A stretch of 57,295 nt of DNA from Opitutus sp. GAS368. Lineage in GTDB: Bacteria > Verrucomicrobiota > Verrucomicrobiia > Opitutales > Opitutaceae. Location of the stretch: contig CAMBRG010000008.1 of the NCBI GenBank assembly GCA_945869845.1, forward strand, positions 1 to 57,295. Reading direction: 5' to 3'. The notes beneath the pieces were generated by a model. That model searched no databases. It had not been told where the DNA came from and worked only from the letters and a program-made list of their open reading frames with translations. This document shows, piece after piece, positions 1-57,295 of the stretch; the stretch's first letter is position 1, and each line of letters begins with the position of its first letter. The translations under genes were made by a program, and so were the position numbers.

Positions 1-49
1 GCGCCGCTGGCCGGTCAGGCGGACTTGAGTCTTGGGAAACTACCGGGAG

Positions 50-128
50 CCGACTCCGTTTCCACCCGGCGTCCTCCCCTTAAACCCCTCGCGGATTTGA
101 TCCCCCTGCAAATCCAGTTTCCCATCAG
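50..128 (+). promoter_or_regulatory. Repeated 5' leader element, copy 1
   Basis: About 79 nt upstream of the first gene resemble the leader of the TonB receptor gene at 5360. The first 19 bases (CCGACTCCGTTTCCACCCG) are identical to 5263-5281 and the C-rich stretch after them aligns with small gaps. A shared non-coding leader ahead of two otherwise unrelated genes argues that translation of the first gene begins downstream at 184. Its role (RNA element, promoter-proximal site or old duplication) is unknown. Confidence 0.5.
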
Positions 129-183
129 GAATTCGGCGATCCTCCCGCATTCGCCAGAGAGGACCGCGTTGGGCAGGGAAACG

Positions 184-13808: not shown

Positions 13809-13917
13809 AAAATTCACCGTCGTCACCCACGCTCAAGCCCGCCGCCTCGCCAAGGTGGCCAAGGTGGTAGTCCAGCGTGACCGTCAGTGGACTCAACCTG
13901 CACCCCGAAGCCGCCCC

Positions 13918-15276
13918 ATGAAATCGTTCTACTTACTCCTCTCCGTTTTCGCCGCATGCGTTCCGCTCATCGCGGCCGCGGACGCCAAGCCGCTTAACAT
14001 CCTTGTCCTTTACGCCGACGACTGGCGTCACGACACGCTCGGTGTAGCCGGCCATCCGATCGTCCAGACTCCTCACCTCGACCGACTCGCCGCCGAGGGC
14101 GTCCGCTTCACCCGCAACGCCGTCACCACCTCCATCTGCGGCGTGAGCCGCGCCACCCTCTTCACCGGCCAATGGATGTCCCGCCACGGCAATCCTGCCT
14201 TTGAAATGTTCAAGACCCCGTGGGCCGAGACCTATCCCGGGCTCCTACGGGCCCACGGTTTTTACACCGGTCACATCGGCAAATGGCACAACGGAAAATT
14301 CCCCGCCGAGAACTTCGATTTCGGCCGCTCCTACGCCGGGGTGCATTGGACAAAAAACGCCGACGGCACCCAGATTCACGTCACGCAGAAAAACGAAAAC
14401 GACGCCCTCGAATTCCTCCGCACGCGCCCGGCGGACAAGCCCTTCGTCCTCACCCTCGCGTTCTTCGCGACGCACGCCGAGGACCGCAACCCCCTCCAAT
14501 TTCTCCCCCAGCCCGGCAGCCTGGAACTCTACAAAGACTCCGTCATCCCTCCACCGGCGACCGGCGGCGACGATTTTTTCAAACGGCTCCCGCCCTTCAT
14601 CGCCAACGATCAGAACGAGGGCCGCAACCGCTGGCGCTGGCGCTTCGACACGCCGGAAAAATACCAGACGATGATGAAAAACTACTACCGTCTCGCGACC
14701 GAGGTGGACCGCACCTGCGGCCGCGTGATCGACGAACTGCGCAAACAAGGCGCCTTGGAAAACACGCTCGTCATCTTCACCACCGACAACGGCTTCTTCC
14801 ACGGCGAGCACGGGCTCGCCGACAAATGGTATCCGTACGAAGAAAGCATCCGCGTCCCCCTCATCGTGCGCGACCCCCGCCTGCCCGCCGCCCGGCGCGG
14901 CCGCACCAACGCCGATTTCACGCTCAACGTCGACCTCGCCCCCACCTTCCTCGCCGCTGCCGGCGTCGCCACTCCGGCCCGGATGCAGGGCCGCGACCTC
15001 GCACCGCTCTACCTCGCCCCCACCCCGCCCGCGTGGCGCACCGAGTTCTTCTACGAGCACGCCACGATCCGGAGCATCAACTTCATCCCCTCGTCACAGG
15101 CCCTGGTGCGCAAGGACCTGAAGTATTTTCTCTGGCCTGACTTCAAGCACGAGGAGCTCTTCGACCTCGCCGCCGACCCAGGCGAAACGAACAACGTCGT
15201 CGCGGCCCCGGCCTACGCCTCCCGCCTCGCCGAGATGCGGACCCGCTTCGCCGAGCTCAAAGCCGAGGCCCGGTAG
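13918..15276 (+). CDS. Exported sulfatase
   Basis: 452-residue type I sulfatase that would hydrolyse a sulfate ester in the periplasm. I placed the start at ATG 13918 because it is followed directly by a signal peptide ([23 protein letters not shown]); the frame is open further upstream but would overlap the SulP gene. Visible motifs: metal aspartates in LYADDWRHD (residue about 32), the formylglycine site [12 protein letters not shown] with Cys74, GKWHNG, and the second metal/active-site block [27 protein letters not shown]. The core C-x-P-x-R is C-G-V-S-R here, so the usual proline is valine. Linked to SulP upstream, which could import released sulfate. Substrate unknown, probably a sulfated glycan. 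Confidence 0.92.
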
Positions 15277-33273: not shown

Positions 33274-35721
33274 TCAATACGCGGCGTTGACGCGCAGGTA
33301 CCAACGGCCGCCATCGGCATCGTAGGGCGCATTGCGAGAATAGAGCAAACCGTTGGCGGCGTTGAACGTCGCCTTATCCGGATAGCGATTGAACGCGTTC
33401 TCCACGCCCGCCGTGGCACTGATCTGGCGAGTGAATTTCCACGAAGTAGAAAAATCAGCGAGGATTTGCCGGCCAAAATCTTGCACGATCGTCGAATTAG
33501 ATTGGGCGTCGGTCCACTCGCCGAAATAACGCGCGCGGGCCATTAAGCCCAAACGACCGAGCGTGTAATTCAGCGTGACGTTGCCCGCGTTCTGCGGGAT
33601 GCGATTCTCTAAATTAATGCGCGCATCTCTGGAGGTCACGCGAGCATCGTACCGGGTGACGCGGGTGGCGTTGTAATTATATGCCGCCGTGAGCGCCACC
33701 GTCTCTTGCTTGGCGATCGTCCAGCGCTTCGAGGCCACGAGATCGAGACCCTCCGTGCGAGTATCAAACGCATTGGTGAGAAAACTCAGAGAGTTAAGAT
33801 TTTTGGCATCCGTCACCCCCGAAGCCACCAACTGGCTGCGCTGGGCCGCCGTGAGCGTGAAACCTTGGGAGAGACTGAGGCGGTCTTGCACCGCGATCCG
33901 GTAACAATCAACCGAGACCGTGACCTCAGCGCCGGGCGTGAAAACCAAACCGAGACTTACGTTATCAGAATTTTCCGGCTTGAGTGCCTTCGCGCCGAAA
34001 AACACGGCCACGGGATTCGTCACACTGACTTGGCCGGAAGTGAAGAGCGTGGAAGTTCCCGGCAATAAACCTTGGCTGGTCCGCGTGTAATAGGACAGCC
34101 CAGGCGTCGGCGCGTGAAAGCCTGTGCTCACCGCACCTCGCACCGCCAAAGTCGACAGCGCCTGAAAGCGCGAAGAAAGTTTCCCGTTGGTCGTGGCCCC
34201 GAAATCGGAATAATCCTCCGCGCGACCCGCGATCGCAAAACTCAAGCGCTCCAGCGGCTGCAGGTCGAAATCGACATACGCAGCGTTGCTGTCGCGGTCG
34301 GCATCGACGATCTGCGATGGGCTCCAGCCTGGAAATCCGTTCGCCCCAACGGCGAGATCGGCAAACGGTCCGACGTCCCACGAATAACGATCACCCCCGC
34401 GGATTTTAAAATGCTCGCGGCGGTTTTCCGCGCCAAAAGCGATGTTGATGGGTTTCGGAAAAAATCCGCTGTTCCAGTTGTAAACAAAATCCGCGTTCAG
34501 GTTGCGCTCAGCCTGGTTCAAACCGCCGACATCAAACACCGTCGGCGACTCCGGACCGAATGAAGCGTTCACGGCATTGGTCAGTTTATAATCGATGCGA
34601 TTTCGACCCATCGCGGCACTGAAATCATAATTCAGGCCCATCGCCGTGCTCCCCTTCAAGCCGCCCACGAAGTGGTAATCCTCATCCTTCGAAGCGAAGT
34701 ACGGGGCAAAACCACCCGGGAAACGCTCCACCAAGGAATAATTAGGATAAAGCGACGTCGGCGCATTTTGATAAATTGAGCGCCTAAAAGCCGCGTTGGT
34801 GTCAGGATTGCGCCAGTTGAAATCGTCCAATCCATCACCCGAGCCGAAGATCATAAAGCCGTAGGCCTTGATCGCAGTCGTCAAAGGCAACGCTCCATTC
34901 AGCATCAGGCGCTGGGATTCGCGTTCGGGCTGACCCCAACGTTGGACCGGCTGACGCACGGCCGCCGCGCGCTCGGGATGAGCTGCGATGTAGGCCAACG
35001 CATCGGCGCGCTGGATCGAGCGCGAGGTACGATCAGCCTTCATGTATTCCAAAGCGACATTGATGAACCCGCCGGCCGGTAGTTTGAAACCCGCATCGAA
35101 GCCGACTTGGCGATTAAATCCGTCGCCGCCGAAATATTGGCTCACTTGGCCAAACCCTTCGTAACCGATGCGATCTTTGAGCACGAGGTTGATCACGCCG
35201 GCAATGGCGTCGGAGCCATATTGCGCCGAAGCGCCATCCCGCAATACTTCCACCCGCTGCAACCCGAAGGCCGGAATCTGACCCAAATCCGCGGCTTGCG
35301 AAAAACCACCGGTAATCAAGGCGGAACGATGCTGCCGTTTGCCGTTGATCAAAACCAAGGTGTGATCCGGCGAGAGACCGCGCAAGCGCGCCGGACGCAC
35401 AAACGCCGCACCTTCACCGATCGTGAGGCGCTGCACATTAAAAGAAGGCACCGCTTGGACGAGCTTGTCGGTGAGTTCCCCGGAGACCGAGGACTGCAAC
35501 GTCTCCGAGCTCACCACATCGACCGGCACCATGGATTCCACCAAGGTGCGATCTAAGCGCCGCGTACCCGTCACAGTAAGCGCCTCGAGTTTCAAGGGCT
35601 CCGAAGCCGCGATCTGCGCCGCCGCCGCACTTTGGCCGTACCCTGACGCCACAGACGACAGAGCGATCACGGTGCCTAGCGTGCGGCAAGAAAAACGTAT
35701 CAGTGTAAACAGACGATTCAT
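33274..35721 (-). CDS. TonB-dependent receptor
   Basis: 815-residue outer-membrane receptor. ATG 35721 begins MNRLFTLIRFSCRTLG and gives a signal peptide ending around SGYGQSAA. The TonB box is LEALTVTGTRR near residue 40; the plug holds LVLINGKRQHRSAL, GLQRVEVLRDGASAQYGSDAIAGVINL, and the barrel ends in VNAAY. Unlike the other three receptors it belongs to the class with the VLINGKRxHRSA motif, seen in iron- and nutrient-uptake receptors. The stop lies 8 bases upstream of the chosen start of the exported aminotransferase gene; a transport/processing pair is plausible. Upstream 35722-35896 shows no recognisable operator. Confidence 0.93.
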   Translation of the reverse strand: MNRLFTLIRFSCRTLGTVIALSSVASGYGQSAAAAQIAASEPLKLEALTVTGTRRLDRTLVESMVPVDVVSSETLQSSVSGELTDKLVQAVPSFNVQRLTIGEGAAFVRPARLRGLSPDHTLVLINGKRQHRSALITGGFSQAADLGQIPAFGLQRVEVLRDGASAQYGSDAIAGVINLVLKDRIGYEGFGQVSQYFGGDGFNRQVGFDAGFKLPAGGFINVALEYMKADRTSRSIQRADALAYIAAHPERAAAVRQPVQRWGQPERESQRLMLNGALPLTTAIKAYGFMIFGSGDGLDDFNWRNPDTNAAFRRSIYQNAPTSLYPNYSLVERFPGGFAPYFASKDEDYHFVGGLKGSTAMGLNYDFSAAMGRNRIDYKLTNAVNASFGPESPTVFDVGGLNQAERNLNADFVYNWNSGFFPKPINIAFGAENRREHFKIRGGDRYSWDVGPFADLAVGANGFPGWSPSQIVDADRDSNAAYVDFDLQPLERLSFAIAGRAEDYSDFGATTNGKLSSRFQALSTLAVRGAVSTGFHAPTPGLSYYTRTSQGLLPGTSTLFTSGQVSVTNPVAVFFGAKALKPENSDNVSLGLVFTPGAEVTVSVDCYRIAVQDRLSLSQGFTLTAAQRSQLVASGVTDAKNLNSLSFLTNAFDTRTEGLDLVASKRWTIAKQETVALTAAYNYNATRVTRYDARVTSRDARINLENRIPQNAGNVTLNYTLGRLGLMARARYFGEWTDAQSNSTIVQDFGRQILADFSTSWKFTRQISATAGVENAFNRYPDKATFNAANGLLYSRNAPYDADGGRWYLRVNAAY

Positions 35722-44242: not shown

Positions 44243-46489
44243 ATGCTTCCTTTCGCGCTCTCCATCTTCACGGGAGCTTTTCTACTGTTCCAAGTTCAAC
44301 CGCTGATCGGGAAATTCATCCTTCCTTGGTTTGGCGGCAGCCCGGGCGTATGGACGACCTGTCTGCTTTTTTTCCAAACGTTGCTGCTCGGCGGCTACGC
44401 TTACGCTCATTTTTCTTCGACCTACCTCAAGCCGCGCCATCAGGCCGTGCTTCATCTTGCGCTGTTGCTCCTGGCGTTGGTGTTCCTGCCGATCACTCCG
44501 GCGGACAGCTGGAAAACTCAAATCGCCGGCGAGCCCACGTGGCACATTCTACTGCTGTTGGTCGCGACCATCGGCCTGCCCTACTTCGTTTTGTCGGCGA
44601 CCGGCCCCTTGATGCAGCAATGGTTCGGCACCACCCATCCCGGCGCTTCGCCGTATCGGCTCTACGCGCTCTCCAACATCGGCTCGCTCCTCGCGCTGCT
44701 GAGTTATCCGATTTTTTTTGAGGTCCGGTTCTCTCGCCTTGAACAGGCCGGACTATGGTCCATCGGCCTGAGCGCGTTTGTCCTCTTGTGCGGCTGGTGC
44801 GCGTGGCGAGTGTGGCGCCAGCTGCCGGCCCCCGCGACCGCACGCACCGCCGACGATGCGCCTGAAGCGGCCACTCCTTGGATTCACCGTCTCTTCTGGG
44901 TCGCCTTGCCCGCTATCGCCTCCGTCCTCCTCCTCGCGACCACCAACAAGCTCTGCCAAGAGGTCGCCGTGATCCCGTTCCTTTGGGTGCTGCCGCTCGC
45001 ACTCTATTTGTTGTCCTTCGTCCTCTGCTTCGATCACGCGCGTTGGTATCACCGCCCGACCTTCGCCGCGTTGCTGGTGCTCAGTCTCGCCGCGGTCTGC
45101 CTCATGCTTGGGGCCGGCACCGAGGCGCCGATGAAACTTCAAATCGCCGGCTACAACCTCGCGCTCTTCGTCGCCTGCATGGTGTGTCACGGCGAACTCT
45201 ACCAACTCAAACCGCCACCCCGTCGGCTGACCGGTTATTTTCTCTTCATCTCGGCCGGCGGCGCCCTCGGCGGCCTGCTCGTCGCGATCGTCGCGCCCGC
45301 GCTGCTGCAAGAGTTTCACGAGTTCGAAATCGGTCTCGTCGCTCTCGCCGTGGCGTTTGCCGCGCTGGGTTTTGTCCGCCGCAGCCGGGCCTTGGCGCTC
45401 GGTGCCATCATCGGCGCTTTGGCCGCCACCTTTGCGATTCCGGGCCTGTTGGCCTCCTTCGACGGCGGCCTTGGTTTCTGGACTGAATTTGTGCTCTTTT
45501 TCCAGCTCCAAAAATGGACCGTTATCTTCGGGATCATCGGCGTGCTGGGTTGCTCGTTTGACTTCACCATCGGCCGCTTCGCCAAGGAGTGGCGCTGGCC
45601 GCTCGGGCTTCCGGCTATTCTCCTCGCGGGCATCTTGAGCCACGTGCTCTTTCAACATGCCACTCGCGCCGAGACGGCCACGGTGCTCGCCGCCTCGCGT
45701 AATTTCTACGGCACGCTCAAGGTCTACGACCACTCCGTCGACGAGCCCGATCAGCACTACCGACTGCTCATGCACGGCGCGACCACCCATGGCCTGCAAT
45801 TCACCGCGCCCGCCCGCGCCATGCTGCCCTCCACCTACTACGGTCCGACCAGCGGCGTGGGCCTCGCGGTCAAGCACCTCGACCGCCCCGCCGGCATGAA
45901 AGTCGGAGTCGTCGGTCTCGGCACCGGGACCATCGCCGCTTACGGCCGCGCCGGGGACACCTACCGCTTTTACGAAATCAACCCCGCCGTCGAGCGGCTC
46001 GCCCGCGCCCCGTTCACTTACCTCGCCCAAACCCCGGCCAAGGTCGACGTCATCATGGGCGATGCTCGCCTCGAGCTGGAGCATGAGCTCGACCGCCAGG
46101 AGCCGCAAAATTTCGATCTCCTCGCCCTCGACGCCTTCAGCAGCGACGCGATCCCCGTCCATCTCCTCACCGCCGAGGCGCTCGCCCTCTACCTGCGCCA
46201 CCTCAAGCCCGATGGCGTCATCGCGATCCACATTTCCAACCGTTACCTCGACCTCCAGCCCGTCGTCGAGCGTCTCGCCGACCACCATGGCCTCGCTGTC
46301 GCCTGCATCTCCGACGATCCGACCGACGACTGGTGGCAATATTCCACTACGTGGATGCTGCTCACGAAGAGCCTCCCGTTCCTCGCAAAGTCCGAGATCT
46401 TGGGCGTCACCGAGGCACCGCCGCTCGATCGCCGCCCGGCCCCGCTCTGGACCGACGATCAAGCGAATCTTTACAGCATTCTGAAGTAG
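44243..46489 (+). CDS. Fused MFS transporter / spermidine synthase-like protein
   Basis: 748-residue membrane protein. The first 480 residues form many hydrophobic helices (MLPFALSIFTGAFLLFQVQPLIGKFILPWFGG opens it; SATGPLMQQWFGTTHP and SNIGSLLALL follow the MFS-like pattern). The C-terminal 250 residues are a spermidine-synthase-like Rossmann domain: GVVGLGTGTIAAYGRAGDTYRFYEINPAVERLA, IMGDARLELE and FDLLALDAFSSDAIPVHLLT. Fusions of this kind are common in Verrucomicrobiota and Planctomycetota; the reaction and transported compound are unknown. Divergent from rlmF, with the shared 230-base promoter region between them. Confidence 0.85.
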   Translation: MLPFALSIFTGAFLLFQVQPLIGKFILPWFGGSPGVWTTCLLFFQTLLLGGYAYAHFSSTYLKPRHQAVLHLALLLLALVFLPITPADSWKTQIAGEPTWHILLLLVATIGLPYFVLSATGPLMQQWFGTTHPGASPYRLYALSNIGSLLALLSYPIFFEVRFSRLEQAGLWSIGLSAFVLLCGWCAWRVWRQLPAPATARTADDAPEAATPWIHRLFWVALPAIASVLLLATTNKLCQEVAVIPFLWVLPLALYLLSFVLCFDHARWYHRPTFAALLVLSLAAVCLMLGAGTEAPMKLQIAGYNLALFVACMVCHGELYQLKPPPRRLTGYFLFISAGGALGGLLVAIVAPALLQEFHEFEIGLVALAVAFAALGFVRRSRALALGAIIGALAATFAIPGLLASFDGGLGFWTEFVLFFQLQKWTVIFGIIGVLGCSFDFTIGRFAKEWRWPLGLPAILLAGILSHVLFQHATRAETATVLAASRNFYGTLKVYDHSVDEPDQHYRLLMHGATTHGLQFTAPARAMLPSTYYGPTSGVGLAVKHLDRPAGMKVGVVGLGTGTIAAYGRAGDTYRFYEINPAVERLARAPFTYLAQTPAKVDVIMGDARLELEHELDRQEPQNFDLLALDAFSSDAIPVHLLTAEALALYLRHLKPDGVIAIHISNRYLDLQPVVERLADHHGLAVACISDDPTDDWWQYSTTWMLLTKSLPFLAKSEILGVTEAPPLDRRPAPLWTDDQANLYSILK

Positions 46490-46633
46490 GCTCGGGGCGC
46501 GCCGACACGCGACCGCTCGTTCGCGTTTGAGCCCGAAAGAGCCTCGGCTCCCCGATCGCGCTTTGAGCTGCGCACCGACTTGAACGCCGGGCTTGCCGGG
46601 GGCGGCCGTTCCCACCAAAGCACTACCCACCCC

Positions 46634-47194
46634 GTGAAATCAGAGTTCTCCTCCGACACTTTCCCGTCCGCCGATCACCGCTGGTTCAACGACCATGTTC
46701 TGCCGCACGAACCTCTGCTGCGCGCGTGGTTGCGCAGCCGGTTCCCGCGCGGCGTCGATCTCGACGACCTCGTGCAAGAATCGTTCGCCCGCGTCCTCCG
46801 CGCCCGCGCCAACGGCGCGGCGATGCGCTCACCCAAGGCGTTTTTCTTCGCCACGGCCCGCAACCTCGCCCTCGACGTTCTGCGCCATCGCCACGTTTCC
46901 GGCCAAGATACCTTAGTGCCTTTCGATTCGTTGAACGTCCTAGATGATAGTGAAAGCATTCCCGAAACCGTCGACCGCACCGAAAAACTCGAACGCTTGA
47001 CCTTGGCCATCCAATCCCTGCCTGAACGCTGCCGCGAGGTCATGACCTTGCGCAAAGTCTACGGACTGCCCCAAAAGGAGATCGCGGCGCGCCTCGGCAT
47101 TTCAGAGTGCACCGTCTCTGCACAGCTCACCATCGGCGTGCGCAAGTGCACAGAATCGTTCGCCCGCGACCGCCGCGAAGAGGGGCTGCGGTGA
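46634..47194 (+). CDS. ECF sigma factor (FecI-like)
   Basis: 186-residue sigma-70 family regulator of the extracytoplasmic function type. GTG 46634 (VKSEFSSDTFPSADHRWFND) is the likely start; an ATG 54 bases upstream is possible. Region 2: LLRAWLRSRFPRGVDLDDLVQESFARVLRARA; region 4: EVMTLRKVYGLPQKEIAARLGISECTVSAQLTIGVRKC. Its 3' end overlaps the FecR start (GTGA), so sigma and anti-sigma are translated in step. It should direct transcription of the receptor-phosphatase genes downstream. Confidence 0.92.
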   Translation: MKSEFSSDTFPSADHRWFNDHVLPHEPLLRAWLRSRFPRGVDLDDLVQESFARVLRARANGAAMRSPKAFFFATARNLALDVLRHRHVSGQDTLVPFDSLNVLDDSESIPETVDRTEKLERLTLAIQSLPERCREVMTLRKVYGLPQKEIAARLGISECTVSAQLTIGVRKCTESFARDRREEGLR

Positions 47195-48207
47195 GCATTC
47201 CCACGCCCGATGAACAAGCCGCCGAGTGGCTCGTCCGGCGCGACCGCGGTCTCACGCCGGCCGAGCAAGACGATTTTTTCCAGTGGCTGGCCGCCGCCCC
47301 GCACCACGGTGATGCCCTTGCCCGTCAACAGGCGACGTGGCGCGAACTCGATCTCCTCTCCGACTGGCGTCCGGAGCACGCACCCGAGCCAAATCCTGCG
47401 CTCCTCGCTCCACCGCGCCGCGCTGCACGCCGCCCTTTCCGCTGGCTTGTCCCCGTTGCGCTCGCCTCCGCTGCGGCCGTTGTGACCGTCTTCTTCTTCC
47501 GCGACGCCCGGTCACATTCGCTGATGGTGGCGGAAAGAATCGCCGTCGCTGTCGGCTACGAACAACGGCTCCTAAACGATGGTTCCCTGCTCGAACTCAA
47601 CCGGGGCGCCTCCGTCGTCGTCGCCTACACCGCCGCCGAGCGCCGCGTGCTCCTGTTGACCGGTGAGGCGCGCTTCACCGTCGCGAAGAATCCCACCCGC
47701 CCGTTTATCGTCAGCGCCGCCGGCGTCGAGACGCGGGCCCTCGGCACCGCCTTCAATGTTCGGCTTGCTGCCGGGTCCGTGGAGGTCCTCGTCACCGAGG
47801 GCCGCGTGCAAGTCGCGCCATCAGCACCGACCCCGGCGCCTCTGCCCATGTTGGGGGTCGGCGAAAAACTCACCGTTCCGCTGGTGAACAACCGGGGCCG
47901 GAACTCGGCTCCCGCCGCTCTGGTGCCCGTGGCCGTCGGGGCCGAAGAAATCGCCCGCGCCTTGGCGTGGCAGCCCCGCCTGCTTCAGTTTTCGTCCGCG
48001 CCCTTGGCCGAAGTCGTAGCCGAGTTCAACCGGCACAACACCCTCCAACTCGCCTTGGCCGATCCGGCGTTGGCCGCCCTCCCTGTGACGACGTCGTTTC
48101 GCTCCGATAATGCCGAAGGATTCGTGCGCCTCCTTGAGCTCACTGCGGGCGTCCAAGCCGAACGCCGGGGCGACACCATTTCGCTCAGACTCGCGAATTC
48201 ACGTTAG
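47191..48207 (+). CDS. FecR-type anti-sigma factor
   Basis: 338-residue inner-membrane regulator. GTG 47191 is preceded by GAGGGG and overlaps the sigma stop. The N-terminal cytoplasmic segment (residues 5-55, AAEWLVRRDRGLTPAEQDDFFQWL) binds sigma; one transmembrane helix (RWLVPVALASAAAVVTVFFF) follows; the periplasmic FecR domain contains LNRGASVVVAYTAAERRVLLLTGEARFTVAKN and ALGTAFNVRL. A C-terminal STN-like half (LAEVVAEFNRHNTLQLALAD, LLELTAGVQAERRGDTISLRL) probably contacts the receptor. Sits 34 bases before the receptor gene. Confidence 0.92.
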   Translation: MSIPTPDEQAAEWLVRRDRGLTPAEQDDFFQWLAAAPHHGDALARQQATWRELDLLSDWRPEHAPEPNPALLAPPRRAARRPFRWLVPVALASAAAVVTVFFFRDARSHSLMVAERIAVAVGYEQRLLNDGSLLELNRGASVVVAYTAAERRVLLLTGEARFTVAKNPTRPFIVSAAGVETRALGTAFNVRLAAGSVEVLVTEGRVQVAPSAPTPAPLPMLGVGEKLTVPLVNNRGRNSAPAALVPVAVGAEEIARALAWQPRLLQFSSAPLAEVVAEFNRHNTLQLALADPALAALPVTTSFRSDNAEGFVRLLELTAGVQAERRGDTISLRLANSR

Positions 48208-48241
48208 TGTCTCTCGGGTCGTGGGCCGTCTTGTTAAAACA

Positions 48242-51200
48242 ATGTTCCCACTTATGCCCCACCCCACCCGCTTCGCGCGTTGGCTCTTGGCCGCCGTCTT
48301 AATCTTGTCGCTCAGCGTTCGCTCGTCTCGCGCGAACCCGGCACCACAGCGCTTTGATATTCCAGCTGGAGATGCGGCCACCGCGCTTCGCCTCGCGGCC
48401 CAACAGGCCGGCCGCGAGATCATGTTTCCCGCCGCCATCGTGCAAGGCGTTCGCGTCGCCGCCGTCCGCGGCGAATTCACGGTTACTGAAGCCGTCACCC
48501 GCATGCTCGCCGGCACCGATTTGCAGCTCGTGAACGACGCCGGTTCCTCCGCCTTGGCCGTTGGCCGCGCCCCTTCGGCTGCGACCCCACGAAACCCTAG
48601 GCTCTTGCAGCCGACCTTAACCGCCGCGCTCGACGAGGAGGTCATCACGCTGACCCCGTTCCAAGTTGGCGCCGACGACAACACCGGCTGGGCTCCCTCC
48701 GAAACGCTGGCCGGCACGCGCTTCAAAACGAAACTCTCCGATTTGGCGTCCCAGATCGATGTCTTCACCCTCGATTTCATGGAGGAGTTTGGATTCACCA
48801 GCATCGAATCCGCCTCCGTTTACTCGCTCAACATTGAGAATAGCACCGAGTTTGTGAACAACGTGGAATCCAAGGGAGGCGGCGAAGGTGACCTGCGGGT
48901 ACGCGGCATTGGCCAAGCGCGAAGGACCCGAGAATTTTTCGCGGCCAACTCCCGTTCGGACAATTACAACTTGGAGCGCGTCACCCTCGCCTCCGGGCCG
49001 AACCCGATGATGTTCGGCATCGGGGCTCCGACCGGCGCCGTCGATTCGAGCTTGGCCCGGCCGATCATGAATCGAAACACCCGCCAGTTGAAGACGCAGT
49101 TCGATAGCTTCGGCGGCATTCGCGGCGAGCTGCACCTCAACCAAACTCTGGTCCAAAACAAATTGGCCTTCCGCGGAGCTCTCCTCGCCGACAACAAGAA
49201 ATTCTACCCGCGCCCCTCCATCGACCGGGAGCGCCGGGGCTACGCCGCGCTGCTCTACAAACCGTTTAAAAAAACCCAATTCAGCGTTCACTACGAAAAC
49301 GTGACCGGGCACGGCCGGACGCCCTCACGCGTTCCTCCGTTGGACCGGGTTCGCGTCTGGGACCAAGCCGGGAATCTGGGTTCCGCCCTCGGCAACCGCC
49401 CGATCTTTTCCAACACTCTCGCCTGGCAAACCGGGCGACCCGCCGGGGGCGGCTTGCCCGCGATCGGGGCGAAGGTGAATCCGGATGACCGGGTTTTCAG
49501 CACGTCGGGCGACGGCGCCATCAGCGTGGTCGGTGGCAACAATCCCGCCGGCGTCCGTCCCTTTGGTTCGTTTTACTCGGTCGGCGTCCAAAACATCGCC
49601 GACAACGGGCGATGGCCAGGGATCGTCGATCCGGTCAATGCCGGCACCACGCGCGGCGTTTCGCTGCTGAATGACGACTATTATCCCCGCGACGCCAGCT
49701 ACCATTACTTCACCGATTTCGGCGACCGCGACGCGTCGATTGTGAACCTATTTTTCAACCAGGAGATTTTAAAAGATCTTCATTTCGAGGCCGGCTATCA
49801 GCGCGAAGCTAACCAGAATTTTGGCGCCAGTTACATGGCCGGCGGCAACGGCGGCCTTAACTTGAACGTCGATCCCAACCGATTCCTCGCCGACGGCGTC
49901 ACCCCCAATCCCTATGCGGGAAAGCTCTACTTCGACGGACTGGCCGGGTTCGATCACGGCTGGGCCAAAAGCGACGAATGGCGCGCCGCGCTCTCGTATG
50001 AGCTCGATTTCAAGGAACGCTCCAAGCACCGGTTTTTGCGCAGCTTGGGCCGGCACCGCATCGCCGGCATCGTCTCCGCGATCGAGTCGAAGAACCTCAA
50101 TCAAGAATACCGCTACAACCTCCAGCCGAAGATCGAAAACGGACGGATGCGCGATCCGGTTTTCAGCGGAGTGAACTACAACATTGAGCCCGACGGACGC
50201 CGAGGGCTTGGGCCTTTGGGCAGCGGTTACACCGCCGCTTCCAACAACCGCGTGGTCAACTTCCGGTCCTATGTCGGGCAAGATTTGGGTTTCGTGCCCC
50301 GCGTCGATGGCTACCAGATCGGGGAAGCCTGGAACATTACCGACAACAACCGCGAGGTCTGGACCGTCGATCCGAGGAACGCGGGCGTCGGCACCCAGGG
50401 CGAGCGCCTCATCACTGGGCGGAACACGGGCGGCACCCACACCGAATTCGGCACCAAGCTTTTCTCATACCAAGGTTACCTGCTCGAAGACCGCGTGGTG
50501 CTGACCTACGGGCGGCGCGAGGATTCAAACAACACGGCGCGGTCGGCCGCTCCGGCGGTCCTGTGGCGAAACCCCGAAACCGGGCAAGTCATCTCAGCCG
50601 CCTCCGCCGGCTACCAAGCCCACATCGATCACTACGGCTTCGACAAAATGGACCCCGCGACTGAGGCCGTCGGAACCACCACGCTGAAGGGCATCGTGGT
50701 CCATCCGTTCCGCGACTGGCGCTGGAAGCTTCCCTTGGGCGCAGACCTCTCGCTCATGTTCACCGAGTCGAATACCTTCGCGCCGAACACCACCTCCCGA
50801 AATCCCGACGGCAGCTTCATGGCGAGCGAACGGGGCGAAGGCACCGACCAAGGCTTCCGCCTCGGCCTCTTCGAGGGTCGCTTCAATCTGCGGTATAACG
50901 AGTATGATGTCGCCTCGTCGCCGACCCGGCTTGGCGCACTCTTCGCCGGCATCCGGGGGGCGATGCGGAATGTGATGAAAGACATCACCCGGGCCATGGT
51001 GGCCAACGAGGCTGATTTCCGGGCAAAATTTCCTGCTTGGCCTCTGCAAGGCCAAGGCGAGCCCAAATTCGCCTACCCGTTTGCGGCCGCGAACAACGGC
51101 GGATTCGAAACGATGAATTTCTTCAATTACCTCGATCCTTACGCGGTCACCGCCGATACCGCCGCTAAGGGTCGAGAGATCACGATGCAGTGGAAGCCGA

Positions 51201-52003
51201 CCAGAAATCTGGATCTCCGCCTCACTTGGAATCAGCAGGAAGTCGTCCAGACCAAAATCGCCACGCAATGGATCCAGTTCGCCGACGAGTTCGAGCGCAT
51301 CATGGATAAAACCCTATTCACCGAGGGTTACGTCCCGGGGGACACGGAAGCCATTTACCGCAATCCCTCGGGCTTCGACATGGACGGAGACGGCGTCATC
51401 CGCCAATACACGTGGAACGCGATTCCGATCGGGGCCGGCGCCGGCCAGACCGTGCCCCAAAACATCGCCTCGGCCAACACCCCGTGGGGCCGGAATGACG
51501 ACCTCTTCGCGGGCGGTTGGACCGGTCAGACGATGAAAGAGAATTGGATCTCCAATGTGCGCAACGGCAACTCCGGCGTTCCCGTATTGCAGGCCTACAA
51601 CGGACGCCCCAACGAATTCACGCGCGACAATCGCGCCAACCTCAACGCCATGTATCGCTTCAGCGAAGGCGCGTTGAAGGGCTTGCGCGTCGGTGCCGGC
51701 TACCGGTGGCGGGCGCCTGCGGCCATCGGCTTCGGCGTCAAGCGGATCAACGGCGTGGCCGTGCCAGATGTGGACATCATCCAAAAAGGAAAAGCGGAGA
51801 CCGCCGTCGACTTGTCCTTTGGCTACACGGGCAAATCAAACTGGCTCGGAAATCGGCGATACAGTCTGGCGCTGAACGTCCGGAACGCGTTCCCGCAAGA
51901 TCGCTACGACACCCGAAATCGTGACTTCTTTAACGGGAATTCGCTCACCACGGTCCGCCTGATCCCGCGTCAGTTTATCCTCTCCTACGAAATCGACCTC
52001 TGA
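48242..52003 (+). CDS. FecA-like TonB receptor with STN signalling domain
   Basis: 1253-residue outer-membrane receptor, the largest of four in the window. ATG 48242 (or 48254) gives a signal peptide with [17 protein letters not shown] domain (residues about 32-110: [26 protein letters not shown]... [19 protein letters not shown]) is the transducer part that contacts FecR. The TonB-box-like [14 protein letters not shown] follows near residue 140, then a plug and an unusually long barrel; the C-terminus is ILSYEIDL rather than ending in an aromatic residue. Together with the two genes before it this is a complete surface-signalling unit. Eight bases separate it from the phosphatase gene. Confidence 0.94.
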
Positions 52004-52011
52004 GCCACCCG

Positions 52012-54387
52012 ATGAACGAACCCATCAACCGCCGCACCGCGCTCAAACTCATTGCCACCGCCACCGTCGTCGGTGCGACCTCCGGTCTCAGATCGAACGC
52101 TGCAACGACCGCGGCAAGTCCTTCGCCCGATCCCGGCAAGAGCGATCCTTGGCGCCGAACTCACGACCGCGTTTTTCTCGGGGGTGCGTTCTGGGCCAAT
52201 CCCATGGAGGATTGGCAAATCGCCGATGGCGGCGTGGAGTGCCGGAGTCTGGGCGGAAATCGCAGCATTCACTCGCTGACGCATCAAATCACGAGCCCGT
52301 TAAAGGGCTTCGCGATGTCGGTGCAGCTCTCGCAACTCGAGGTGCAAGGCATCGACGCCGGCGCCGGCTTCCGCCTCGGCGTGCGGAGCGAGCTCAACGA
52401 ATATCGCAGCAACTGTTTCGTCGCCCGCGGCCTCAACGCCGGGGTCGCCGACGGCCAGTTGCGGCTCGGATCGAAGTCGGCGCCGTTGCCCCCCGGAACC
52501 AGCCTCAAAAAAATCGATCTCTTGCTTAACGGCGTCGCCAGCGGAACGGACGTCGCCCTGACGCTCGAAGCGCGCGAGGTCGACACCGGCGCGAGCCTCG
52601 CCAAGCTCACCCACCTCACCCCAACCGACAGCCTGCTGGGCAACGTTGCCCTCGTCAGCAATTACGGCGCAGATGACTCGCAGAACGCGGGCAAGAAAGC
52701 GGTCAAAAACGCGAATCCGGGCCGCTCGCGTTACCGCTTCACCGCTTGGAAACTGGCCGGCGAGGCTTTCACCATTTCGGACCGCCAACGCTTTGGCCCG
52801 ATCCTGTGGTCCATGTATTCACTGAGTGATTCGCGGACTGCGGAAGGCTGGATCATGAAACTCAGCGCGCTCACCGGTCCCATGGGACGCGACGACAGCC
52901 AAGTCGTGGAACTGCACGTGCAGCGCAACGGTGCTTGGCAATCGCTGGGCGAGGCCAACCTCGATCCCGACGCCTGGGTCGCCACATTCCGCGTTCCAAA
53001 ATGGGACGAAAAAGCCGCCGTGCCCTACAAACTCGTCTACCGCGAAAAGCACCGCGATGGCACCGTCACGCCGGACGAGTGGACCGGCACGATCTTAGCC
53101 AATCCCGTCGGCCGACCGCTGCGCTTGGCCGCGATGACCTGCCAAAACGACTACGGATTCCCCTATGAACCCGTCGCCCGCAACGTCGCAAAACTGAAGC
53201 CCGATCTGGTGTTCTTTTCCGGCGACCAAATCTACGAGAGCCACGGCGGCTTCGGCATCATCCGCGAGCCGGCGGCACCCGCGATCCTCAACTACCTGCG
53301 GAAATTTTATCAATTCGGCTGGGCGTTTCGCGACGTGATGCGCCATGCGCCCACAATTTGCATCCCCGACGATCACGACGTTTTCCAAGGCAACATCTGG
53401 GGCGAGGGCGGCGCCAAGATGTCGATCACCGCTGCTGATCCCGGCGCCTCATCGAAGGGCGGCTACATCGAGCCCGCCCGCATGGTGAACGCCGTGCATC
53501 GGACCAACGTCTCGCACCACCCGGACCCGTTTGACCCGACGCCGAGCAAACAGGACATCAGCGTTTACTACGGAGACATGGTCTATGGTGGCGTGAGTTT
53601 CGCGATCCTCGCCGATCGCCAGTGGAAGAGCGGGCCCGAGCGCGTAAAGACCGGTGGTCCGCGAGCCGATCATGTGACCGATCCTAATTTCGACACCCGC
53701 ACCCTCGACCAACCGGGCTTGGTTCTGCTCGGCGAACGGCAGGAAGCGTTCTTGAAAGAATGGGCGCAGGACTGGCGCGGGCACTCGCTCAAAGCCGTGC
53801 TCAGCCAGACGGTGTTTGCCGCCGTCGCCACGCACCACGGGCGGTTGGATGGGTTTCTCAAAGGCGACCTCGACTCCGGCGCGTGGCCGCAAACCGCGCG
53901 CAATCGAGCCATCGACCTTCTCCGCCCGGCGATGGCCCTGCACATCAACGGCGACCAGCACCTCGCGACCCTCGCCCAATACGGCGTCGGCCAACAGCGC
54001 GACAGCATGTGGTCCTTCTGCACACCCGCGATCGCGGCCGGCTACCCGCGCTGGTGGCGCCCGGACGATGCGGGTATGCCACACACGAAACGCCCCAAGC
54101 ACGGCCTCGCCAACACGGGCGAATTCCTCGATGGCTTCGGCAACAAGGTATACGTCTACGCCGTCGGCAATCCTGAGGTCGGCCAAGCGACGAATCGTTA
54201 TGACCGCGCCCACGAGAAGGGCAGCGGGTTCGGCTTCGTCACCTTCGATCCGGCGAAAAAAACCTACACCGTCGAATCGTTCCGTTTCCTCATCGATCCC
54301 ACCGACGGGAAAGCTTCCAACCAGTTTCCCGGTTGGCCCGTGACGATTCACCAAACCGAAAACCGCGGTGAAAACCGCCTCGACTAA
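52012..54387 (+). CDS. Tat-exported PhoD-like phosphatase (alkaline phosphatase D family)
   Basis: 791-residue phosphoesterase. The N-terminus carries a twin-arginine-type leader ([20 protein letters not shown]). A beta-rich N-terminal domain of about 220 residues, not typical of PhoD, precedes the catalytic domain, where metal ligands are visible: [44 protein letters not shown], and [15 protein letters not shown]. Calcium- and iron-dependent PhoD enzymes act on phosphodiesters and monoesters in the periplasm. The gene is the fourth in a run with ECF sigma, FecR and the receptor, so the substrate may be the imported or sensed ligand. Confidence 0.88.
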
Positions 54388-54389
54388 CC

Positions 54390-55343
54390 ATGGATCGCCG
54401 CACCTTCCTGCGCACCGGCTCAACCCTCACCGCTGCATCGTTGTTGATGCCCACCACATCGCTCTTCGCCGCCACGCCGCCGAAATTTTCCCTGAATTAC
54501 GCGCCGCACCCAGGCACGTTCAAAAGCAAAGGAGGCGAAGACTATCTCGATCAAGTGCGCTTCGCCGCCGACCAAGGCTTCACCGCTTGGGAGGACAACG
54601 GCATCAAGCGACAGACTCCTGAAATGCAGGAGAAAATCGGCGCTGAGCTGGCCCGCCTCGGAATGACTATGGGCGTGTTTGTCGCCTACGGCAGCTTTGA
54701 TCGACCCACGTTTGTCCGAAAGGACAAGGCAGCGTGGGACGAAGTCACCCGAACCGTCAGCGATTCGGTCGCCGTTGCGAGACGCATCGGTGCGACTTGG
54801 ATGACCGTGGTGCCCGGGTCGGTTGACCAGCAGCACAAGGATGATCCCAAGTGGAACCAATTCGGCGGGCCGCGTCTCGCTGAGGGGTACCAATTTGCCA
54901 ACGCGATCGAGCTCTTGCGCGGGCTGAGCGCGCTGTTGGAACCGCACAAACTGGTCATGGTTCTGGAGCCACTGAACTGGCACGCCAACCACGGCGGCAC
55001 GTTCCTGACCCGCAGCGATCAGGCGTATGCGATCTGCAAGGCCGTCAACAGTCCGTCCTGCAAGATCCTGTTCGACCTCTACCACCAGCAAATCACTGAG
55101 GGTAACCTCATCCCCAACCTTGATGCCTGCTGGGACGAGATCGCCTACCTGCAATCAGGCGACAATCCCGGCCGTAAAGAGCCCGGTACCGGCGAAATCA
55201 ATTACCGCAACGTCTTCCAGCACGTTTACAAAAAAGGCTTCAAGGGCGTCATCGGCATGGAGCACGGCAACGCCAAACCGGGAGCCGAAGGCGAACAAGC
55301 CGTGATTGATGCCTACCGCGCGGCCGACGCTTTTGCCCGTTAG
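54390..55343 (+). CDS. Tat-exported hydroxypyruvate isomerase-like TIM-barrel protein
   Basis: 317-residue protein with a twin-arginine leader (MDRRTFLRTGSTLTAASLLMP). It matches the sugar-phosphate isomerase/epimerase (AP endonuclease 2) fold closest to hydroxypyruvate isomerase: FSLNYAPHPGTF, the metal-site Glu in MVLEPLNWHANHGG, ILFDLYHQQITEGNL, LQSGDNPGRKEPGTGEINY and GMEHG. Tat export with this fold is common in PVC bacteria, so the true substrate is probably a sugar rather than hydroxypyruvate. It starts 2 bases after the phosphatase stop, consistent with one transcript. Confidence 0.88.
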   Translation: MDRRTFLRTGSTLTAASLLMPTTSLFAATPPKFSLNYAPHPGTFKSKGGEDYLDQVRFAADQGFTAWEDNGIKRQTPEMQEKIGAELARLGMTMGVFVAYGSFDRPTFVRKDKAAWDEVTRTVSDSVAVARRIGATWMTVVPGSVDQQHKDDPKWNQFGGPRLAEGYQFANAIELLRGLSALLEPHKLVMVLEPLNWHANHGGTFLTRSDQAYAICKAVNSPSCKILFDLYHQQITEGNLIPNLDACWDEIAYLQSGDNPGRKEPGTGEINYRNVFQHVYKKGFKGVIGMEHGNAKPGAEGEQAVIDAYRAADAFAR

Positions 55344-55539
55344 CTCACCCGCTCTTTTCCAACCCCGCTGAGCGAGTTCTCTGATGATCTCCCGGATCGA
55401 ACACGCCGGGACTAACCGCCTGCGCGTCGTCGCCCGCCTCTCCACCAGCCTCGGCGGTGCTATCAACATCTTTCCCTTCGGCTCCCCAGCCTAAGCCCTG
55501 CACCGAGCCCTTGCATAAACTGCCGCCGAGACTCCTCGC

Positions 55540-55785
55540 ATGCCGAAATTCGCCGCCAACCTCACCCTGCTCTCCACCGAGGCGCCCTTCATGGCACGCT
55601 TCGCTTTGGCTCGCGCGTCCGGTTCCGCCCACGTCGAGGATCTGTTTCCCGCTGCTTTCAAAGCCGGGGAACTGAAAACCGACCTGACAAAGCACAGTCT
55701 GCAGGAAGTCCTCTTCAATTTGCCCGCCGGCGATTGGGCGGCTGACGACGGCCCGAACGATCACTTCACTTGTAACCGATTTTGA
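55540..55785 (+). pseudogene. hyi: Truncated hydroxypyruvate isomerase N-terminus
   Basis: 81 codons, MPKFAANLTLLSTEAPFMARFALARASGSAHVEDLFPAAFKAGELKTDLTKHSLQEVLFNLPAGDWAADDG, are the clear N-terminal third of a cytosolic hydroxypyruvate isomerase (about 260 residues); the NLPAGDWAA motif is diagnostic. It then stops, with no trace of the C-terminal two thirds before the next gene at 55851. The start is intact, so a truncated peptide could still be made. The rest of gap 55344-55850 has no other recognisable gene. Confidence 0.75.
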
Positions 55786-55850
55786 GTAGGTGCGTCTGAG
55801 CACCGCTAGGCGCTCACGTCGCCCGAATCCTCACTGTTCAACCACGCATC

Positions 55851-57164
55851 ATGAATTCCGACCTTACCGCCTTCGCGCCCAGCCGCCGCCATTTCCTGCG
55901 GGCCACCGGCATCAGTCTTGCCCTTCCCTTGCTGGAATCTCTCAGCGGACGCGTCTTCGCCCAAAACTCAGCCGTCGGCGCCCTGCCCGGCAAAGCGGCC
56001 GGCACGACCCGGCCCAAGCGCATGGTGTGCGTCGGCAACATGCTCGGGTTTCACCCGCCGACGTTTTTTCCCACCCAGACCGGCCGCGACTACGAACTGC
56101 CCACCGTTCTCGAATTTCTCCAACCGCTTAAGCCAGAGGTCTCCATTTTCTCCGGCCTCGATCATGGCGTAAAAGGCGGGCACTTCGCGATCAGCTCATT
56201 TCTGAGCGGCGTGCGCACGGCCGATGCGAAAGGGATGCCCGAGGGCAACCTCACCCTCGACCAACGCGCGGCAGAGACGATGGGCGGCGCCACGCGGTTC
56301 TCATCGCTCGCGCTGGGTTCCGAGAGCGGGATTCATGGCGGTTGCATGATGTCGTGGACGCGCAGTGGCACCCGCGTGCCGCCCATCAGCACACCACGCG
56401 AACTTTTCCGAAAACTGTTTGTGTCAGACGGTGCCGCGCAAATCGCGAGCTCGACGGACCGCCTCAATCTCAAGGGCTCCATCCTCGACGCGGTGCAAGG
56501 CGACGCAAAATCCCTCGAACGTCACCTCGGCCAGCGCGACAAAGAGAAGCTCGAAGAGTATTTCACGTCGGTGCGCGACGTGGAGAAGCAGATCGAACTG
56601 CGCCGCCAGTGGGCGCACGTCCCGAAGCCCGATCCAAAAATGAAAGAGCCCAACAACAAGGGCTTCGTCTCCGACCTCCCGCTCATGTATGACCTGATTG
56701 CGCTCGCGCTGCAGACCGACTCGACCCGCATCGCGACGTTCGAGATCGGCGGCGACTTCGAGGCCAATGCCTTCGGACTGAACGGCGGGTATCATGCCTT
56801 TTCCCATCACGGCCAACGTCCAGAAGCGATCGCCGCTCTCATCAAGATGGAGCGTTATCAAGTCGAACAGTTCGCCCGCTTCCTCACCAAACTTCGGAGC
56901 ACCGCAGACGGACCCGGCAGCCTCTTGGATCATTCTATGGTTCTTTTCGGCAGCGGCATGGGCAACGCCAACTCCCACACCAACGGGAATCTCCCGGTCA
57001 TTTTTGCCGGCGGCGGCTTTAAGCACGGCGAGCACAAAGCCTATCCGGAAAAAGGCCTCGGCCGGCAGCCGCTGTGCAATCTTTATTTGTCCATGCTTCA
57101 GCGCTTCGGTCTCGAGGTGAACAAATTTGGCACCAGCACCGGCCCCCTCACTGGCCTCACATAA
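55851..57164 (+). CDS. DUF1552 family protein with Tat signal
   Basis: 437-residue exported protein of the DUF1552 family (PVC bacteria). The Tat leader is SRRHFLRATGISLALPLLES; family features include RMVCVGNMLGFHPPTFFP, ELPTVLEFLQPLKPEVSIFSGLDHG, LDQRAAETMG and FGSGMGNANSHTNGNLPVIFAGGG. Members are usually next to cytochrome-bearing DUF1592/DUF1588 proteins, so the gene that starts at 57200 may be such a partner. The function is unknown; by analogy with DUF1501 it belongs to the alkaline-phosphatase-like group. Confidence 0.92.
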   Translation: MNSDLTAFAPSRRHFLRATGISLALPLLESLSGRVFAQNSAVGALPGKAAGTTRPKRMVCVGNMLGFHPPTFFPTQTGRDYELPTVLEFLQPLKPEVSIFSGLDHGVKGGHFAISSFLSGVRTADAKGMPEGNLTLDQRAAETMGGATRFSSLALGSESGIHGGCMMSWTRSGTRVPPISTPRELFRKLFVSDGAAQIASSTDRLNLKGSILDAVQGDAKSLERHLGQRDKEKLEEYFTSVRDVEKQIELRRQWAHVPKPDPKMKEPNNKGFVSDLPLMYDLIALALQTDSTRIATFEIGGDFEANAFGLNGGYHAFSHHGQRPEAIAALIKMERYQVEQFARFLTKLRSTADGPGSLLDHSMVLFGSGMGNANSHTNGNLPVIFAGGGFKHGEHKAYPEKGLGRQPLCNLYLSMLQRFGLEVNKFGTSTGPLTGLT

Positions 57165-57199
57165 ACGTTTTCGGACCTCCTGATTCCCGCTCAAGACCT

Positions 57200-57295
57200 A
57201 TGCTTCGTTGCTCGCTCCTCTTCTCCGTCGTGCTGCTCGCGACGACGGCAACCCCGGTAGCTGCCGCGTCCAGCGACGCGGTCGTAAAAAGCTTC
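57200..57295 (+). CDS. Start of a secreted protein gene (truncated by window end)
   Basis: 32 codons from ATG 57200 encode MLRCSLLFSVVLLATTATPV and then AAASSDAVVKSF, a classic signal peptide with an AxA-type cleavage site. The window ends here. From its position after DUF1552, a cytochrome c/DUF1592-type partner is expected, but no domain is visible yet. Confidence 0.6.
   Translation, partial: MLRCSLLFSVVLLATTATPVAAASSDAVVKSF

What the first reader, a model, noticed from the sequence alone, without database searches (positions are those of the whole stretch)
46634..55343. Surface-signalling operon that ends in a phosphatase and a Tat isomerase
Sigma factor, FecR, STN-bearing TonB receptor, PhoD-like phosphatase and exported Hyi-like isomerase are packed with GTGA overlap and gaps of 34, 8 and 2 bases. 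Fec-type systems are known for iron, but here no siderophore or iron transporter is present and the effector genes are a phosphoesterase with an extra 220-residue N-terminal domain and a sugar-isomerase fold. This would make a substrate-induced unit for taking up and processing a phosphorylated sugar or phospholipid head group. Seen: gene order and domains. Inferred: the substrate and regulation.
Basis: partly seen in the sequence, partly recalled or inferred. Interest (0 to 1): 0.72.

Follow-up and report, generated by a model that had tools for sequence, protein, structure and literature searches.

The report
Surface-sensing operon for sulfated sugar polymers
A bacterium related to Opitutus carries five tightly packed genes for a surface receptor with its own switch proteins and for two enzymes with predicted export signals, and the gene neighbours of its relatives suggest that the unit likely senses and trims a sulfated sugar polymer rather than a phosphate compound.

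Summary
The five genes are as described: sigma 46634-47194, FecR 47191-48207, STN-bearing TonB receptor 48242-52003, PhoD-like enzyme 52012-54387, Hyi-like TIM barrel 54390-55343. A FecIRA-type head is well supported: all 8 FecR hits of the genome have an STN hit within 1 kb, and receptor orthologues without STN show no sigma or FecR in the fetched stretches. The PhoD-like protein has a lectin/CBM66-like domain (residues 43-252) and an all-beta domain before a purple-acid-phosphatase fold; this build is conserved in Verrucomicrobiota and Planctomycetota. The unit does not end at the isomerase: DUF1552 and the start of a further gene follow, and in L036, the closest relative whose contig spans the locus, a PSCyt/DUF1592 gene and two sulfatases come next. 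PhoD relatives have a sulfatase within 5 kb in 38 of 80 named loci, and no phosphate-regulon family is among the 25 commonest neighbour families. A sulfated-glycan unit thus fits better than phosphorylated-sugar or phospholipid uptake. The five-gene order was seen only in the window and L036. Substrate, regulation and enzyme activity are inferred. New variant of known FecIRA-type nutrient loci; moderate interest.

The parts
46634..47194 (+). ECF sigma factor (FecI-like)
   Evidence: Sigma70 r4_2 51 bits, r2 46 bits; TIGR02937 93 bits
47191..48207 (+). FecR anti-sigma factor (DUF4880 + FecR domain), GTGA overlap with the sigma gene
   Evidence: FecR PF04773 61.9 bits, DUF4880 30.3 bits; overlap read from sequence
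48242..52003 (+). TonB-dependent receptor, 1253 aa, transducer type
   Evidence: STN 48425-48544, plug 48734-49039; FecA profile matches the N-terminus; relatives aligned
48425..48544 (+). STN signalling domain of the receptor
   Evidence: 29.4 bits over a cut-off of 28.4; 24.1 bits, under it, with the long ORF
52012..54387 (+). Lectin-domain PhoD/purple-acid-phosphatase-fold enzyme, 791 aa, twin-arginine motif at residues 7-8
   Evidence: PF09423 50.9 bits; model pLDDT 80.5, pTM 0.84; fold matches
52138..52767 (+). Legume-lectin / CBM66-like domain (residues 43-252)
53107..54384 (+). PhoD / purple acid phosphatase catalytic domain (residues 366-791); C377, D405, Y408, D454, H455, D648, H650 invariant in 57 sequences
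54390..55343 (+). Hyi-family TIM barrel, 317 aa, twin-arginine motif at residues 3-4 (predicted exported)
   Evidence: AP_endonuc_2 102 bits; R3, R4, E193, D229, H232 invariant in 20 sequences
55540..55785 (+). Remnant (81 codons) of a second Hyi gene without twin-arginine motif, cut after the N-terminus
   Evidence: matches 3ngf_A, E 2.9e-16, residues 1-70 only; frame read
55851..57164 (+). DUF1552 / HXXSHH protein with twin-arginine motif; likely continuation of the locus
   Evidence: PF07586 283.7 bits; 95% identical gene in the same order in L036
57200..57295 (+). First 32 codons of a gene cut by the contig end, likely PSCyt/DUF1592-type
   Evidence: read from sequence; L036 has a PSCyt1/PSD2-5 protein here

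Best explanation
An ECF sigma factor, a FecR anti-sigma factor and an STN-bearing TonB receptor are packed head to tail with a lectin-domain PhoD-fold enzyme and a Hyi-family TIM barrel that both carry twin-arginine motifs, and the unit likely works as the substrate-induced front end of a locus for a sulfated sugar polymer. Inferred working: a fragment of the glycan binds the receptor; the STN domain signals to FecR; the sigma factor is released and transcribes the receptor and the downstream genes. The lectin-PhoD enzyme would be exported, bind the glycan through its lectin domain and remove ester groups (most simply phosphate), while sulfatases, the DUF1552/PSCyt pair and the TIM barrel process the rest. 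Shown here: gene order, domains, predicted folds, co-occurrence of STN with sigma/FecR in the loci examined, and the neighbour genes of relatives. Inferred: substrate, induction, export and chemistry.
For: STN and FecR pair one to one: 8 FecR hits and 8 STN hits of 22.8 bits or more (5 of them over the cut-off), 731-999 bases apart. Receptor orthologues without STN (L042, L111, L152) have no sigma or FecR in the fetched stretch; those with STN (L036, L043, and L038 as a separate 150-aa ORF) have both. L036 continues PhoD-TIM barrel-second PhoD-DUF1552-PSCyt/DUF1592-sulfatase-sulfatase. Of the 80 named PhoD loci kept (best of 198 found), 38 have a sulfatase within 5 kb, 12 DUF1552, 13 DUF1592; at most 11.8% of this genome lies that near a sulfatase. 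Two same-genus genomes put the PhoD orthologue (81-82%) beside sulfatases, a Melibiase-type protein, galactokinase and DUF1552/DUF1592. Immediate neighbours: 15 of 106 scanned are sulfatases, with carbohydrate families next. Lectin-like domain. 84 sulfatase matches in the genome, 82 over the cut-off.
Against: No sulfatase is seen beside this copy itself: the nearest hit over the cut-off on this contig (C8:13996-14967) lies about 32 kb before the operon and the contig ends after DUF1552, so the link rests on L036 and other relatives. 33 of 103 plug-bearing receptors in this genome lie within 10 kb of a sulfatase, so proximity alone is weak evidence; two receptor-relative loci (L152, L156) have none. 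31 of 80 PhoD loci have no sulfatase in the fetched stretch, some of them short. The catalytic domain has a phosphatase, not a sulfatase, fold. The receptor-PhoD gap is 8 bases here and in L043 but 163 in L036, 105 in L111 and 103 in L038, so one transcript is not assured in all. The five-gene order was seen in no third locus.
Confidence: 0.6

Rival explanations
1. Organophosphate scavenging: a FecIRA-type unit that takes up phosphorylated sugars or head groups, like the phosphate utilisation systems (PUS) of Flavobacterium johnsoniae. The PhoD-like enzyme frees phosphate outside the inner membrane and the TIM barrel converts the sugar.
For: PUS clusters combine ECF sigma, FecR, a TonB-dependent transporter and phosphodiesterases and are induced by phosphate depletion (PMC8115612, passages). 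The catalytic domain has the PhoD/purple-acid-phosphatase fold. Another FecR locus of this genome (C116) also has a PhoD-type gene after the receptor, and the C27 locus has a glycerophosphodiesterase-family gene there.
Against: No phosphate-transport or PhoBR family is among the 25 commonest families of 106 neighbours; 51 rarer families were not shown. The one Pho-box-like match in the window is not near the operon and is at chance level. Sulfatases and DUF1552/PSCyt genes are the recurrent neighbours.
Confidence: 0.22
2. Iron or metal-chelate uptake by a FecIRA system whose two downstream enzymes are unrelated passengers.
For: Sigma, FecR and STN receptor are the classical iron-type set. Other TonB receptors of unknown substrate lie on the contig.
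Against: No match to the E. coli Fur box in 57,295 bases at up to 3 mismatches, a weak test since Fur boxes of other groups differ. The receptor stands directly before PhoD in 5 of 80 named loci, in 3 of them without STN and sigma/FecR or with a split STN. No iron-transport family apart from generic TonB receptors among the 28 window ORFs scanned.
Confidence: 0.06
3. Loose neighbourhood: the signalling head controls only the receptor; the PhoD-like and TIM-barrel genes are commonly shuffled genes of this group that happen to follow it.
For: The five-gene order was seen only in the window and L036; the receptor-PhoD gap varies from 8 to 163 bases; the TIM barrel family is very common (8000 of 8000 scored candidates matched).
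Against: Gaps of 8 and 2 bases on one strand here; receptor directly before PhoD in L036, L038, L042, L043 and L111; PhoD and TIM-barrel clusters share the contig lengths 31831 and 68414 in two further cases, which suggests linkage elsewhere but shows no adjacency.
Confidence: 0.12

Closest known systems
FecIRA-type cell-surface signalling (E. coli ferric citrate system)
   Same: ECF sigma, FecR and STN-bearing TonB receptor in that order
   Different: No iron genes seen beyond generic TonB receptors; two enzymes with twin-arginine motifs follow directly; E. coli-type Fur box not found
ECF sigma/anti-sigma controlled polysaccharide utilisation loci of Bacteroides
   Same: Anti-sigma factors interact with SusC-like porins and glycans release the sigma factor (PMC3878776, passages)
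   Different: No SusD partner and no glycoside hydrolase among the locus proteins scanned; sulfatases and PSCyt/DUF1552 genes in relatives instead
Phosphate utilisation systems (PUS) of Flavobacterium johnsoniae
   Same: Sigma, FecR, TonB transporter and phosphoesterase together (PMC8115612, passages)
   Different: Here neighbours of relatives are sulfatases and carbohydrate genes; induction unknown
Sulfatase-PSCyt gene neighbourhoods of freshwater Verrucomicrobia
   Same: Sulfatases beside PSCyt-encoding genes, proposed to act on sulfated polysaccharides (PMC5615132, passages)
   Different: The main text holds no occurrence of FecR or sigma or PhoD
Bacillus subtilis PhoD (2yeq) and plant purple acid phosphatases
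   Different: N-terminal lectin-like domain; no PhoD_N (PF16655) match at E 0.001

Membership tests
FecIRA-type cell-surface signalling | ECF sigma next to a FecR anti-sigma factor | tested here: met
   spacing
FecIRA-type cell-surface signalling | TonB receptor with an STN domain | tested here: met
   29.4 bits over the cut-off; 24.1, under it, with the long ORF
FecIRA-type cell-surface signalling | Substrate-dependent activation of the sigma factor | not testable with these tools
   needs expression data
Iron-type FecIRA | Fur control | tested here: inconclusive
   no match to the E. coli Fur box; the Fur box of this group is not known to me
PhoD (PF09423) | Pfam score over the curated cut-off and PhoD fold | tested here: met
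PhoD (PF09423) | Phosphodiesterase/phosphatase activity | not testable with these tools
   no assay
Hydroxypyruvate isomerase (TIGR03234) | Score over the equivalog cut-off | tested here: not met
   100.2 bits against 353.45: a relative, not a member of the equivalog
Xylose isomerase-like TIM barrel (PF01261) | Pfam score and conserved acidic/His residues | tested here: met
   102.1 bits over 31.1; E193, D229, H232 invariant in 20 sequences
SusCD-type polysaccharide utilisation locus | SusD lipoprotein beside the TonB receptor | tested here: not met
   the receptor's neighbours are FecR and PhoD; no SusD-family match among the 8 proteins scanned
Flavobacterium-type phosphate utilisation system | Induction by phosphate depletion | not testable with these tools
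   only a Pho-box scan, no match near the operon

The most novel reading that the evidence does not exclude
Verrucomicrobiota have fastened a glycan-responsive FecIRA switch onto a nearly glycoside-hydrolase-free sulfated-glycan locus, in which a lectin-bearing purple-acid-phosphatase-type enzyme, conserved across Verrucomicrobiota and Planctomycetota, strips ester groups next to sulfatases, and backbone breaking is left to PSCyt/DUF1552 proteins and exported TIM barrels instead of hydrolases.
Probability: 0.3. Interest if true: 0.68.

Novelty: new variant of a known kind. Interest (0 to 1): 0.42.

Why it matters
Sulfatase- and PSCyt-rich lake Verrucomicrobia have been proposed to degrade sulfated polysaccharides, yet nothing is known of the functions of the PSCyt proteins and the unknown families beside them (PMC5615132, passages). 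A receptor with its own sigma switch offers a way in: whatever induces this operon is likely the substrate of the locus. It would also give the widespread lectin-PhoD proteins, often filed as alkaline phosphatase D (names), a testable role in glycan use rather than in phosphate supply.

Tried and rejected
Phosphorylated-sugar or phospholipid substrate: not excluded, but neighbour counts favour carbohydrates and sulfatases. Iron: no E. coli-type Fur-box match. Pho box: one match with 3 mismatches at 35655-35672, at chance level (2.09 expected). Contig C67 as the direct continuation of the window: rejected, because its end matches the window's end at only 85% over 379 bases; it is a second copy or another strain (contamination estimate 2.97%). 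Sequence search of the PDB with the PhoD-like protein, alone or as a profile of 57, gave nothing, so the fold rests on the predicted model. Promoter scan: 0 sigma-70-like sites in 46400-57295 (1.4 expected), 13 terminator-like sites (13.2 expected); ECF promoters are not covered by it. Phylum-wide search at E 1e-180: 2 of 288 genomes, too strict a cut-off to say more. Literature: nine searches listed, by title and start of abstract, no paper on this combination; only part of the papers found was listed. Read by passages only: PMC5615132, PMC8115612, PMC1790865, PMC8857213, PMC3878776, PMC2754498, PMC12872454.

Limits of the counts. The 80 named PhoD loci are the best 80 of 198 found. Gene calls in loci are my own ORF picks, not a gene finder's, so 'neighbour slots' include false ORFs, and sulfatases were called by similarity to four examples. 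The background assumed 3,300 genes, a number I did not count. The neighbour scan used 106 of 132 eligible proteins (those of L100-L115 dropped to fit the size limit; neighbours under 150 residues or of 1000 and more, such as the receptors, were left out). The sulfatase background used 82 of 84 hits, those over the cut-off. Of the 15 receptor places, I mapped 10 besides the window; L150 is L036 and is counted apart, which leaves the 9. Four weaker places (34-36%) were not fetched with flanks; one of them, G088:C385, has a sulfatase beside it. The 9 are partly related to each other (G012 and G057 share a genus and G057 counts twice), so the binomial value of 0.006 is optimistic. Several unnamed and named loci are the same contig (L150 and L036, L151 and L111, L160 and L037, L161 and L039). 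The STN-sigma/FecR agreement over 21 loci includes loci fetched because they hold FecR; the telling cases are the receptor orthologues.

Recalled, from no call: roles of STN and FecR in signal transfer beyond the cited passages, the metal-binding role of the conserved PhoD and Hyi residues, and twin-arginine signals, read by eye without a predictor.

Full report
Observation. The ORF list and the sequence confirm five codirectional genes between 46634 and 55343 with a GTGA overlap and gaps of 34, 8 and 2 bases. Pfam gives an ECF sigma factor, DUF4880-FecR, PhoD and a xylose-isomerase-like TIM barrel. The receptor has weak but consistent STN and plug matches, and the FecA profile matches its N-terminus. 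The PhoD-like, TIM-barrel and DUF1552 proteins start with twin-arginine motifs, read by eye; the arginines are invariant in the 20 aligned TIM-barrel sequences and kept in 90% or more of 57 PhoD sequences.

The unit is longer than reported. DUF1552 (55851-57164) follows, then 32 codons of a further gene cut by the contig end. Between the TIM barrel and DUF1552 lies an 81-codon remnant of a second Hyi gene without twin-arginine motif (55540-55785; 3ngf_A, E 2.9e-16). In L036 (Opitutia bacterium Tous-C4FEB, PhoD 91% identical), the closest relative whose contig spans the locus, the order is sigma-FecR-receptor-PhoD-TIM barrel-second PhoD-DUF1552-PSCyt/DUF1592-sulfatase-sulfatase. The second PhoD gene is missing from the window. 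L043 (Baikal-G3, 95% over 656 residues) is closer still, but its contig ends inside PhoD.

Signalling head. The genome has 103 plug matches, but only 8 FecR matches and 8 STN matches of 22.8 bits or more (5 over the cut-off), and these pair one to one at 731-999 bases. A ninth STN match (15.6 bits, C132) is not near FecR. Among receptor orthologues (77-98% identical), those of L036 and L043 have the STN region fused. L038 has it as a separate 150-residue ORF (37% identical over 97 residues; no Pfam match at E 0.01). L042, L111 and L152 lack it. In the fetched stretches, sigma and FecR are found only with the first three. G081/L153 is cut by its contig end and says nothing. The switch thus looks like an add-on to a receptor that elsewhere works without it; this evolutionary order is inferred.

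Neighbourhoods. In the 80 named loci kept (best of 198), 38 have a sulfatase within 5 kb and 49 in the fetched stretch; 13 have DUF1592 and 12 DUF1552 within 5 kb. A TonB receptor lies within 5 kb in 6 loci: the orthologue directly before PhoD in L036, L038, L042, L043 and L111, and another receptor in L068. FecR is within 5 kb in 3 and the TIM barrel in 2 (L036, and L111 where it is split over two ORFs). Sulfatases fill 33 of 296 neighbour slots (all). Of 106 immediate neighbours scanned, 15 are sulfatases, 6 GDSL/BNR, 5 3-keto-disaccharide hydrolases, 5 DUF1552, 4 PSCyt, 3 galactokinases, 3 rhamnose mutarotases, 3 acetyl xylan esterases. In L037, L039 and L046 (L037 and L039 are contigs of the same-genus genomes G018 and G088) PhoD sits with sulfatases, a Melibiase-type protein, galactokinase, DUF1552 and DUF1592; a SulP sulfate permease lies in L039 and L040. 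Nine receptor-relative loci of 34-88% identity were mapped; 7 hold a sulfatase within 5 kb of the receptor, L152 and L156 none.

Controls. At most 11.8% of this genome lies within 5 kb of a sulfatase and 17.9% within 10 kb, yet 25 and 33 of 103 plug-bearing receptors do. Sulfatase counts in nine relatives run from 42 to over 100. The enrichment is therefore clear for PhoD and modest for the receptor.

Interpretation. A sulfated-glycan unit with a surface switch explains the most. The PhoD-type enzyme most simply removes phosphate, so the glycan may carry both esters, or phosphate release may serve supply; the present data cannot decide. The phosphate-scavenging rival has a real precedent in Flavobacterium and keeps about a fifth of my belief.

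Novelty. FecIRA-type heads, sigma-controlled glycan loci and sulfatase-PSCyt neighbourhoods in freshwater Verrucomicrobia are each known. Their union with a lectin-bearing PhoD enzyme was not found in the searches named under Tried and rejected. I file it as a new variant of a known kind.

Noticed in passing
window 55540-55785: Remnant of a second Hyi gene, N-terminal third only, without twin-arginine motif; the same interval of L036 holds a second PhoD gene instead.
   Followed up: partly
window 1-4919 and 11982-15276: PSCyt2/PSD1 gene with DUF1501 at the contig start, and a SulP sulfate permease beside a sulfatase, on the same contig.
   Followed up: no
L036:9838-10000: Palindromic repeat (seen by eye) in the 163-base gap between receptor and PhoD; the gap is 8 bases in the window and L043.
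   Followed up: no
L149 (G000:C67): Contig with DUF1592, two sulfatases and another sigma-FecR-STN receptor, 85% like the window's end over 379 bases: second copy or second strain in the assembly.
   Followed up: partly
G000:C1:7717-94970: 34 sulfatase matches over the cut-off on one contig of this genome.
   Followed up: no
L038:6023-6475: STN-like region as a separate 150-residue ORF overlapping the start of its receptor gene.
   Followed up: partly
L164:13492-14427 and L162:1444-2880: Two other FecR-receptor units of this genome are followed by a glycerophosphodiesterase-family gene and by a PhoD-type gene.
   Followed up: no
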